Assembly: GCA_944325865.1 (NCBI GenBank)
Contig: CALVBS010000006.1
Coordinates: 1-64,000, forward strand
DNA: 64,000 bases
DNA from: Candidatus Gastranaerophilales bacterium
GTDB taxonomy: Bacteria; Cyanobacteriota; Vampirovibrionia; Gastranaerophilales; Gastranaerophilaceae
Direction: 5' to 3'
Part shown: one piece after another, positions 11,683-56,312 of the stretch
How the letters are laid out: every line of letters begins with the position of its first letter
How positions within the stretch are numbered: the first letter of the stretch is position 1
Notes under the pieces: generated by a model
What the model was told of the DNA's origin: nothing
The model's database searches: none
The model's input: the letters and a program-made list of their open reading frames with translations, nothing else
Program-made: the position numbers and the translations under genes

Positions 11683-11991
11683 TTATGATTTCATTGCTGT
11701 TGCATAAGATATAATAAGAAGAATGGCAAATACAATCAGAACTGCATAGCCGAGATTCTTATTGTAATCCTCAAGCGGTTGTCCCGAACTGTCTTTGTAT
11801 CTGTCAAATGTGATTGCGATTAAATCAATTATTGACCATATACCGCATCCGCCTAATGTGAGAGTTTGCAAAATTCCCAGTCCTATATAACCCGTGTAAT
11901 ATCTGTGTACACCGAGCCATCCTAATAAAAAGCATAACAAAAGTGTAATTGAAAAACTTCTTTGTTTTGTTGGTTGAATTTCATTAGACAT
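11683..11991 (-). CDS. TM2 domain membrane protein (copy 1 of 3)
   Basis: 102 aa. After MSNEIQPTKQRSFS come two hydrophobic helices with the TM2 signature (FLLGWLGVHRYYTGY, then GGCGIWSIIDLI), and a third hydrophobic helix near the C-terminus. TM2 proteins are small membrane proteins of poorly known function. It is the last of three tandem paralogues. AGAAGGAAGTAG lies upstream of the ATG. Confidence 0.85.
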   Translation of the reverse strand: MSNEIQPTKQRSFSITLLLCFLLGWLGVHRYYTGYIGLGILQTLTLGGCGIWSIIDLIAITFDRYKDSSGQPLEDYNKNLGYAVLIVFAILLIISYATAMKS

Positions 11992-12079
11992 AATCTACTT
12001 CCTTCTATTTTTTATAAAACTCTTTACTAATATTAACAGTCTTATTTCCTGTTGTCATCGTCTTTTTGTTTTAATTTAA

Positions 12080-12394
12080 TTAATCAAACAATCCCCAGGT
12101 TATAAGATTTATGAATACAATTAACAGAATTAACAATGCAAATACCGCATAAGATAAATATTTGTTGTATCCTTTTAAGTCCTGTCCCTTACTGTCGCGG
12201 AATTTGTTTAAGATTAGAGATAACAGGTCGATTAAATACCATATTCCGAAACCGCCGGCTGTGATTAACTGCAATATACCTATTAATGTGTAGCCTGTAT
12301 AAAATCTATGGACACCTAAACCGCCGAATAAAAAACATAATAAAAGTGTAATTGAAAAACTGCGTTGTTTTCCGGGTTGAATTTCATTTGACAT
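12080..12394 (-). CDS. TM2 domain membrane protein (copy 2 of 3)
   Basis: 104 aa from the ATG at 12394, chosen because AAAAGGAAGTAACT lies just upstream and because the protein then begins MSNEIQPGKQRSFS like copy 1. The frame is open to 12442. Contains FLFGGLGVHRFYTGY and GGFGIWYLIDLL. The N-terminus, TM2 core and flanking non-coding DNA resemble those of copy 1, so the copies arose by tandem duplication. Confidence 0.85.
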   Translation of the reverse strand: MSNEIQPGKQRSFSITLLLCFLFGGLGVHRFYTGYTLIGILQLITAGGFGIWYLIDLLSLILNKFRDSKGQDLKGYNKYLSYAVFALLILLIVFINLITWGLFD

Positions 12395-12490
12395 AATAGT
12401 TACTTCCTTTTGTTTTTCTATAATCCATTGACATATTATCAATGTGGCAGCTTCTTGTCATCATCTTTCTGTTTTAGTTTATATAAATAT

Positions 12491-12532
12491 AAAAGGAGCA
12501 GACTTTTTATGGAAAAATCTGGCTCCTTTTTT
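12491..12532 (-). terminator. Terminator after TM2 copy 3
   Basis: Long inverted repeat: AAAAGGAGC...GCTCCTTTT arms, extended by CAGA/TCTG and the A and T runs with one bulge. Read on the minus strand it ends in a T-rich run. It separates TM2 copy 3 from copy 2. Confidence 0.8.
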
Positions 12533-12545
12533 AATACTCTGTTTA

Positions 12546-12845
12546 TTATGTAGCACTGGTAACAGCTACAAGTATTATGATTAATGCAAGAACACCAAGT
12601 ATGGCATAACCTAAATTTTTGTTATAACCTTCGAGTTCTTGTCCGTTGCTGTCTTTGTATTTACCAAATACTATAGACAGAAGGTCGATTAAATACCATA
12701 TACCGCAGCCGCCTGCAGTAAGAAGTTGTAATACACCAAGACCAATATAGCCTGTATAGAATCTGTGCACTCCGAGTCCGCCTAACAAGAAACACAGAAA
12801 AAGCGTAACAGGATAACTATGTTTTGAATTTTGTAAATGTGACAT
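12546..12845 (-). CDS. TM2 domain membrane protein (copy 3 of 3)
   Basis: 99 aa. Core FLLGGLGVHRFYTGY and GGCGIWYLIDLL as in the other two copies, but with a different N-terminus (MSHLQNSKHSYPVT). AGGAGGAAGT is an excellent Shine-Dalgarno. A 10-base G/C homopolymer lies 40 bases upstream of the start (12885-12894). First TM2 copy after the DUF2752 gene in the transcription direction. Confidence 0.85.
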   Translation of the reverse strand: MSHLQNSKHSYPVTLFLCFLLGGLGVHRFYTGYIGLGVLQLLTAGGCGIWYLIDLLSIVFGKYKDSNGQELEGYNKNLGYAILGVLALIIILVAVTSAT

Positions 12846-12884
12846 TTTACTTCCTCCTATTTAAATACCTGTTTAAGCTTAACA

Positions 12885-12894
12885 GGGGGGGGGG
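12885..12894. repeat. 10-base poly-G tract (poly-C on the coding strand)
   Basis: Ten G in a row on the plus strand in very AT-rich DNA, between the DUF2752 stop (12905) and the TM2 start (12845). An imperfect palindrome, CCTGTT...AACAGG (12868-12886), abuts it. The tract could vary in length by slippage and change the 5' region of TM2 copy 3. Confidence 0.9.
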
Positions 12895-12904
12895 TGTCAT
12901 CCTC

Positions 12905-13216
12905 TCAATGATTGATTTTTGAGCAGTTTTTAATGATAAGCCCAATCCATAAAAAGAACATGAGCGGTGCAACAATTACAATTTTCGGGTTGAAGTTATA
13001 CGCGTCCGTAAATCTGCCTTCAAATAATGCATTGAAGGCTCTTGTAATTCCGCATCCCGGACAGTTGTGGTGTGTGATAATTTTCCATATACAAACCACT
13101 CTTCCACCGTTATGCATAAGAAGTTTTACTGCAATATAGAAAAATACCGGCAAAAGAAGTATAAATATAAATTTTACTAACTGTTTATTTACCTGTAGAA
13201 CCAAAGCCTCCGGCAC
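12905..13216 (-). CDS. DUF2752 membrane protein
   Basis: 103 aa, with hydrophobic helices near residues 15-33 and 77-95 and the family motif [10 protein letters not shown] in between. DUF2752 proteins are small membrane proteins of unknown function that are often encoded beside TM2 genes, as here. The ATG at 13216 overlaps the end of dut by 32 bases. No clean Shine-Dalgarno decides the start. Confidence 0.8.
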
Positions 13217-55507: not shown

Positions 55508-56312
55508 ATGCAAAAGTTAAGTATAGCAATGATTTCGGGGGGGGGGGCAGTCTAAATCAAAGCAAATAGAAGGGTTTACATTAGATTTAAAGGATTCTGC
55601 AAATAAAAGGAATATAAGTAAAGAAGGATTTACTTTAGCGGAAGTATTAATAACACTTGGTATAATCGGGGTAGTCGCAGCACTGACATTACCGTCATTG
55701 ATACAAAAGAATAACAATAAAGTAGTAGAGACGCGATTGAAGAAATTTTATTCAACGATGAATCAAGCGATAATGATGGCAGAGGTTGACTATGGAGATA
55801 AGAAGATCTGGTATGAAGATGTAGCCGGAGCAGAAATAGATAAAGACGGCAATCCTGTACCAGGTAGTTCGCAAGCGGAGAAATGGTTTAATAAATATCT
55901 CGCCCCTTATTTGAAAATAGTAAAGACCGAAACTCTTTCCGACGGTTCCTATATGGTTTATTTTTCTGACGGAAGTGCAATTCGCCCTTGGAGCGCATCT
56001 ACCCGTGATTGGTCTTTTTATCCGGGAAATCCTCAAAAATGTATTGAAAAGTATGGTATACGTGTACATGCTGCAAATGGGAAATGTTCATTTACATTTA
56101 TTTTTAATCCGGCCAATGACTCTGAACCATGGAAGTATCATTATAATAAAGGTATTGAGCCATATAAATTTGGCTGGGACGGAAATAATCAAAAATTGTA
56201 TCAGGGTTCTGCATTTGCATGCGGAGGTAACGAACCACATTACTGCACTGCTATAATCCAAATGAATAACTGGACAATTCCCGAAGATTACCCGTATAAA
56301 GTAAGCTATTAA
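55508..56312 (+). CDS. Prepilin-type gene interrupted by an 11-G tract (out of frame as written)
   Basis: ATG at 55508 with AAAGGAGAG upstream encodes MQKLSIAMIS, then enters a run of 11 G and reaches TAA after GGGAV. If the run had 10 G (or 7 or 13), the frame would continue through QSKSKQIEGFTLDL to EGFTLAEVLITLGIIGVVAA and on to 56312, giving 267 aa. The rest is a normal prepilin-like globular domain with cysteine pairs and an extended Trp/Tyr-rich region. So the gene is either switched off by tract length or the run is miscounted in the assembly. Internal starts (TTG at 55698) would lack the prepilin leader. Confidence 0.7.
55537..55547 (+). repeat. 11-base poly-G tract within the prepilin gene
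   Basis: 11 consecutive G inside a coding start region of very AT-rich DNA, 27 bases after the ATG. Lengths of 10 (or 7, 13) keep the prepilin frame; 11 and 12 do not. This is the layout of a slipped-strand phase-variation tract. Confidence 0.9.

What the first reader, a model, noticed from the sequence alone, without database searches (positions are those of the whole stretch)
12885..12894. Second long poly-G tract in an intergenic region
Ten G lie between the DUF2752 and TM2 genes. In DNA this AT-rich, two runs of 10 and 11 G within 64 kb are far from chance expectation. This one is not coding but sits 40 bases before the TM2 start, next to an imperfect palindrome, so length changes could alter a 5' untranslated region or promoter spacing.
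Basis: seen in the sequence. Interest (0 to 1): 0.6.

Follow-up and report, generated by a model that had tools for sequence, protein, structure and literature searches.

The report
Slippage-prone G/C tract before TM2 gene
A run of ten G:C pairs sits where the spacer of a small membrane-protein gene's promoter should be, and it is one of 18 such runs in this gut bacterium's genome, so it probably lets the cell randomly turn that gene up or down by copying slips; the mechanism type is known, but I found no report of it in this bacterial group.

Summary
The tract is real: G10 at 12885-12894. The genome (2.03 Mb, Candidatus Scatousia, Gastranaerophilales) holds 18 runs of at least 8 G/C, all 10-12 long, none 8-9; under 0.1 would be expected. 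The other 17 lie inside coding sequence with G on the sense strand, 13 of them in the leader of type IV pilin-like genes. This tract is the exception: noncoding, C on the TM2-3 sense strand. It cannot alter the TM2 protein. It lies between a -35-like ATGACA and an extended -10-like TGTTAAGCT. Both neighbouring TM2 paralogues carry ATGACA-17-TAATAT in their leaders. In four relatives the 21 bases upstream of the tract are almost unchanged, while the C-rich part varies or is deleted. In other genera of the family, C or G tracts lie between near-consensus -35 and -10 boxes ahead of adhesin, pilin and sugar-enzyme genes. Best reading: transcriptional phase variation by promoter-spacer length, as in Neisseria opc/porA; assembled C10 gives a 13-bp spacer, predicted weak or off. 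Weak points: the boxes alone are only mildly non-random (p about 0.03-0.06), spacing in relatives is inconsistent, and length polymorphism within the species could not be tested.

The parts
12885..12894 (.). Homopolymer G10 (+ strand) / C10 (TM2 sense strand)
12895..12900 (-). -35-like ATGACA (5/6 to TTGACA), directly abutting the tract; same hexamer in leaders of TM2-1 and TM2-2
12876..12884 (-). Extended -10-like TGT.TAAGCT (TAAACT in G001, TAAGAT in G004, TGA.TAGTAT in G002)
12903..12908 (-). Alternative -35-like TTGAGA (21 bp from the -10-like box at C10)
   Evidence: sequence; TTAAGA in G002
12895..12915 (-). 21-base block TCAATCATTGAGAGGATGACA, invariant but for one base in five genomes of the genus, single copy per genome; contains palindrome TCAATCATTGA (12905-12915), possibly an operator
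12868..12886 (.). Imperfect palindrome CCTGTTTAAGCTTAACAGG overlapping the -10-like box and tract edge; not conserved in G002, different in G004
12853..12858 (-). Shine-Dalgarno AGGAGG of TM2-3
12546..12845 (-). TM2-3, 99-aa TM2-domain protein (PF05154)
12905..13216 (-). DUF2752 gene (PF10825); its 3' end overlaps the conserved block
12433..12461 (-). TM2-2 leader: ATGACA - 17 bp - TAATAT, with TG one base before the second box
12030..12058 (-). TM2-1 leader: ATGACA - 17 bp - TAATAT, with TG one base before the second box
12495..12526 (-). Imperfect terminator-like hairpin with T tail after TM2-3, separating it from TM2-2 (seen by eye; the scanner did not list it)
   Evidence: not
55537..55547 (+). 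The window's other tract, G11, about 30 bases inside a type IV pilin-like gene (out of frame at this length)

Best explanation
The tract is a slippage-prone switch in the promoter of TM2-3. It fills the spacer between a -35-like box (ATGACA, 12900-12895) and an extended -10-like box (TGT.TAAGCT, 12884-12876). Gain or loss of G:C pairs during replication changes the spacer and so how well RNA polymerase engages, giving cells with TM2-3 transcribed more or less. At the assembled C10 the spacer is 13 bp, predicted weak or off; 16-18 bp would need C13-C15. The gene may still be read through from dut-DUF2752 upstream, so the switch may tune rather than silence it. Shown here: the tract, its non-random genome-wide set, conserved flanks with a variable tract, and the same layout at other loci in the family. 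Inferred: that it slips in living cells, that the boxes are a promoter, and that transcription changes.
For: One of 18 tracts of 10-12 in the genome where under 0.1 are expected, the rest in coding DNA mostly at surface-type genes. TM2-1 and TM2-2 leaders have ATGACA-17-TAATAT with TG. In G001, G004, G002 the flanks ATGACA and TGWTARNNT persist while the C-rich middle is CCCTCACCCCCCTCCC, GCCCCCCC and CCCGCGCCCCCCCCCC. The upstream 21 bases are kept in G002 although that TM2 protein is only 47% identical and its upstream gene differs. No tract length can extend or frameshift TM2 because a stop lies in frame 5 codons before its ATG. Independent loci in other genera: TTGACA-TTTTC10T-TATAAT before a 479-aa secreted repeat protein (G245), TTGACA-GC12ATGTGC-TATTAT and TTGACA-GCCCCTC9TGTGG-TATATT (G039), TTGACC-C7TGTTAGTTGA-TATAAT with a 17-bp spacer before a pilin-like gene (G108), TTGACA-AG10AATGC-TATAAT (G203). 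Precedent: porA, fetA, opc (PMC2791445).
Against: The two boxes at this tract score 10 of 14; random window positions reach that in 3% of trials per strand. TAAGCT matches only 3 of 6. The present spacer (13) is outside the working range, and relatives give 19, 11 and 19, so no single optimum is kept; with TTGAGA as -35 the G000 and G004 numbers become 21 and 19. In C-strand pattern searches over the family, promoter-like matches were no more frequent than matches of the reversed control pattern. G009 has lost the whole leader. G001 has an interrupted tract that would hardly slip. Nothing shows length variation within the species.
Confidence: 0.5

Rival explanations
1. The tract lies in the transcribed leader between DUF2752 and TM2 and acts after transcription: as part of a short upstream reading frame (ATGACA + proline codons, 17 codons at C10, ending right before the TM2 start) or by pairing of C with the Shine-Dalgarno sequence. 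Tract length would then change coupling or access of ribosomes.
For: ATGACA opens a frame MTPPPLLSLNRYLNRRK that stops 1 base before the TM2 ATG at C10 and elsewhere at C9 and C11; G001 has CCUCC that can pair with GGAGG, and G004 folds to a strong hairpin around the Shine-Dalgarno (z -3.1). In G009 the same ATG is the TM2 start itself.
Against: The Shine-Dalgarno of the short frame would abut its ATG with no spacing; frame and stop are not conserved between relatives; G000 and G001 fold no better than shuffles (z 0.37 and -0.88); no Rfam match.
Confidence: 0.2
2. The tract may slip but has no effect on anything that matters: a neutral by-product of a genome with permissive slippage, in a spacer between co-transcribed genes.
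For: Relatives have shortened, interrupted or lost it; TM2-3 could be read from the upstream operon; it is the only noncoding tract in the genome.
Against: There are no runs of 8-9 and no other noncoding long tracts, so neutral growth of tracts is not common here; the 21-base flank is strongly conserved; C-richness is kept in four lineages.
Confidence: 0.25
3. Assembly or sequencing artefact.
For: Metagenome assemblies can mis-state homopolymer length.
Against: Eighteen tracts of consistent length at orderly positions, orthologous C-rich stretches in other genomes of the genus, and near absence in other families of the order. The exact length may still be off by one.
Confidence: 0.03

Closest known systems
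Neisseria meningitidis opc, porA and fetA promoters (homopolymer between -35 and -10; PMC2791445)
   Same: Homopolymer G/C tract in the promoter spacer; orientation C on the sense strand as in opc (poly-cytidine, Sarkari 1994 as cited in PMC5084427)
   Different: Distant phylum; target is a small TM2 membrane protein of unknown function; -35 and -10 assignment here is by sequence only
Neisseria pilC and Campylobacter coding poly-G contingency loci (own knowledge)
   Same: The genome's other 17 tracts lie in coding sequence, most near the 5' end, where one base switches the frame
   Different: Here 13 of them are in the leader of the pilin-like proteins themselves
Bifidobacterium breve sortase-pilus slippage switch (PMC9187656)
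   Same: Gut commensal, ON/OFF replication-slippage switch controlling pili
   Different: Sortase pili, not type IV pilin-like proteins; unrelated lineage

Membership tests
Simple-sequence contingency locus (homopolymeric) | Homopolymer of a length that slips (about 8 or more G/C), beyond chance | tested here: met
   G10; 18 tracts of 10-12 in the genome, under 0.1 expected
Simple-sequence contingency locus (homopolymeric) | Length varies between relatives at the same place with flanks kept | tested here: met
   C10, interrupted 16, C7, interrupted 16, and a deletion in five genomes, but between species, not strains
Simple-sequence contingency locus (homopolymeric) | Length varies within a population | not testable with these tools
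   no reads; one genome per species
Promoter-spacer switch (opc/porA type) | Tract lies between -35 and -10 boxes | tested here: inconclusive
   ATGACA and TGT.TAAGCT flank it; score 10/14, 3% of random sites as good; supported by paralogue and relative leaders
Promoter-spacer switch (opc/porA type) | Spacer near 17 bp at a reachable tract length | tested here: met
   13 bp at C10, 16-18 at C13-C15 (sequence); tract lengths 12-14 occur at other loci in this genome and family
Promoter-spacer switch (opc/porA type) | Transcript level depends on tract length | not testable with these tools
   needs experiment
Coding frameshift contingency gene | Tract inside the reading frame it switches | tested here: not met
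   stop codon between tract and TM2 ATG in the TM2 frame; no tract length joins them

The most novel reading that the evidence does not exclude
Non-photosynthetic gut cyanobacteria of this family run a genome-wide G/C-tract contingency system: slippage sites in the leaders of large type IV pilin-like repertoires and in a few surface-glycan and adhesin genes, plus promoter-spacer tracts such as this one, so that each cell shows its own random combination of surface proteins, with TM2-3 as one member of that set.
Probability: 0.5. Interest if true: 0.75.

Novelty: new member of a known kind. Interest (0 to 1): 0.58.

Why it matters
Phase variation by homopolymer slippage is known mainly from pathogens. 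Here an uncultured commensal cyanobacterial lineage shows the hallmark (tracts in a narrow length band, at gene starts, at surface genes) across many genera, with both coding and promoter versions. A small TM2 protein as a target would be a first clue to what these proteins do here. No paper in the open library joins Gastranaerophilales with phase variation, and the one that joins Melainabacteria with it is a flagellin survey; subscription papers were not searched.

Tried and rejected
Mobile or repeated element next to the tract: rejected, the 21-base block occurs once in each of the genomes that have it. Origin from the dispersed GGGGGGnnGGGGGG repeat: rejected, different context. Conserved RNA structure or known RNA family: not found. 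G-strand promoter hits in G113 and G015 (TTGACCCG...): set aside as coding, they spell Leu-Thr-Arg in pilin-like leaders (seen directly for G015, inferred for G113); most of the excess over control comes from such hits. Insertion with target duplication in G004 against G009 (two ATGACA copies): considered; deletion between the repeats in G009 is simpler because four relatives keep the leader. The scan of genome contigs gave only Candidatus Scatousia excrementipullorum, which names the genus. The wider 3-mismatch search for the 21-base block in the family gave only chance-like hits outside the genus.

Full report
Observation. The window reads ten G at 12885-12894. In 64 kb at 35% G+C there is no G or C run of 6-9, then G10 and G11. 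A third-order Markov chain expects about 0.0013 G and 0.0005 C runs of ten or more per window. Scaled to the 2.03-Mb genome this is about 0.06; the genome has 18 runs of at least 8 G/C, and all are 10, 11 or 12 long. The match counts leave no room for a run of 8 or 9. The runs of 6-7 that were looked at belong mostly to a dispersed palindromic repeat. So the tract belongs to a separate population of long tracts.

Where the tracts lie. Around most of the other 17 tracts the same picture returns: a Shine-Dalgarno sequence, ATG, some ten codons, then the G tract on the sense strand. In 13 cases the frame behind the tract runs into the type IV prepilin motif (AFTLAEVLITLGIIGIVAA...) and, in the two tested, matches PF20318/DUF6613, one also PF07963 N_methyl. 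The others are a DUF4422 gene, an AlgX/DHHW-like gene, a giant adhesin-like gene (by its sequence, not tested) and a putative glycosyltransferase (by its sequence, not tested) with the tract near its C-terminus. At the assembled lengths 4 of 16 switchable genes are in frame. Relatives in the same genus and family have G10 or longer in nearly all genomes sampled, other families of the order rarely. In G021, a different genus, most of 29 tracts sit in pilin-like leaders. The closest named relative is Candidatus Scatousia excrementipullorum, so the window is from Candidatus Scatousia; placement of that genus in Gastranaerophilales is my own knowledge.

The exception. The tract at 12885 is noncoding, between DUF2752 and TM2-3, both on the - strand, and shows C on their sense strand. 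TM2-3 has an in-frame stop 5 codons before its ATG, so no tract length can extend or shift the protein. Whatever it does, it does through the leader or promoter.

Comparison. DUF2752-TM2 loci of the genus were collected with both proteins. G001 (92-94% identical proteins), G004 and G002 keep a C-rich stretch at the same place: 16 bases with interruptions, GC7, and CCCGCGC10. Upstream of it 21 bases are identical but for one, although in G002 the block stands between two TM2 genes and the TM2 protein is only 47% identical. G009 lacks everything between two ATGACA copies and starts TM2 at the first. The block is single-copy in each genome. A conserved flank next to a changing tract is what a contingency locus looks like.

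Promoter reading. The scan found ATGACA-17 bp-TAATAT, with TG one base before the second box, in the leaders of both TM2-1 (12058-12030) and TM2-2 (12461-12433); the number of such sites in the region was not above shuffles (15 against 13.3), so the point is their position and shared hexamers, not their count. In TM2-3 the tract begins directly after ATGACA and ends before TGT.TAAGCT; in relatives the second box is TGT.TAAACT, TGT.TAAGAT, TGA.TAGTAT. The tract thus takes the place of the spacer. Spacers are 13 (C10), 19, 11 and 19. Scored against the window, flanks this good arise at 3% of sites per strand; it is the best of the 18 tracts but not overwhelming. Pattern searches in up to 383 family genomes gave clearer cases: TTGACATTTTC10TTATAAT (G245), two in G039, one in G108 with a 17-bp spacer before a pilin-like gene, G207 before a protein with Chlam_PMP repeats, G203 and G324 with G tracts before a putative sugar enzyme and radical-SAM enzymes. 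Raw counts did not beat the reversed control for C tracts, and for G tracts the excess is mostly pilin-leader coding sequence, so the support rests on individual cases with near-consensus boxes and an ORF 20-90 bases downstream.

Mechanism. Most likely copying slips change the spacer and so the activity of the TM2-3 promoter, as in meningococcal opc, porA and fetA, where the homopolymer lies between -10 and -35 (PMC2791445). Predicted state at C10: weak or off. Shown: tract, setting, conservation pattern, family examples. Inferred: slippage in cells, box identity, effect on transcription. The upstream frame and Shine-Dalgarno pairing are possible but not conserved.

Verdict. Observation confirmed; interpretation partly supported; a new member of a known kind in a lineage where I found no report of it. 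The genome-wide pilin-leader tracts are the larger discovery.

Noticed in passing
G000 loci L031-L036, L040-L043, L045, L046 (position 5001 in each) and window 55537-55547: Thirteen type IV pilin-like genes carry G10-G12 about 30 bases after the ATG, upstream of the prepilin cleavage motif; only 2 are in frame at the assembled length.
   Followed up: partly
L031-L046 and L095-L123: Off-frame tracts are mostly one base too long (10 of 16 in G000, p 0.016 for one chosen class; about 20 of 26 in G021), not spread evenly over the two wrong frames. Could be a narrow length equilibrium, RNA slippage, frameshifting or assembly bias.
   Followed up: no
L095-L123 (G021): About 26 pilin-like genes with near-identical N-terminal domain but very variable leaders between the G tract and the cleavage site; some leaders read like translated REP-type repeats (e.g. 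NVMLNLFQHLSR...RNKFGMT).
   Followed up: no
L194-L201 (G000 C1, C2, C3, C4): Dispersed palindromic repeat CCCCCTTTtgTAAAGGGGGGnnGGGGGGATTTT with adjacent CCGTCACTTCGTGACACCTCCCTTA units; accounts for most of the G6-G7 runs inspected.
   Followed up: partly
L171, L192 (G324), L038 (G000), L170 (G203): Different enzymes (radical SAM, DUF4422, a putative sugar enzyme) share a C-terminal tail like FSIRNxxxxKxxxILGFKxKFKRK (only partly in L170), perhaps a membrane or complex anchor.
   Followed up: no
L073 (G009 C5): TM2 leader missing between two ATGACA copies, so that TM2 starts 5 bases after the DUF2752 stop; the search flagged one TAG inside the open frame.
   Followed up: partly
window 11683-12845: Three tandem TM2 genes downstream of nagZ-like, dut and DUF2752 genes, each with its own promoter-like leader.
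   Followed up: partly
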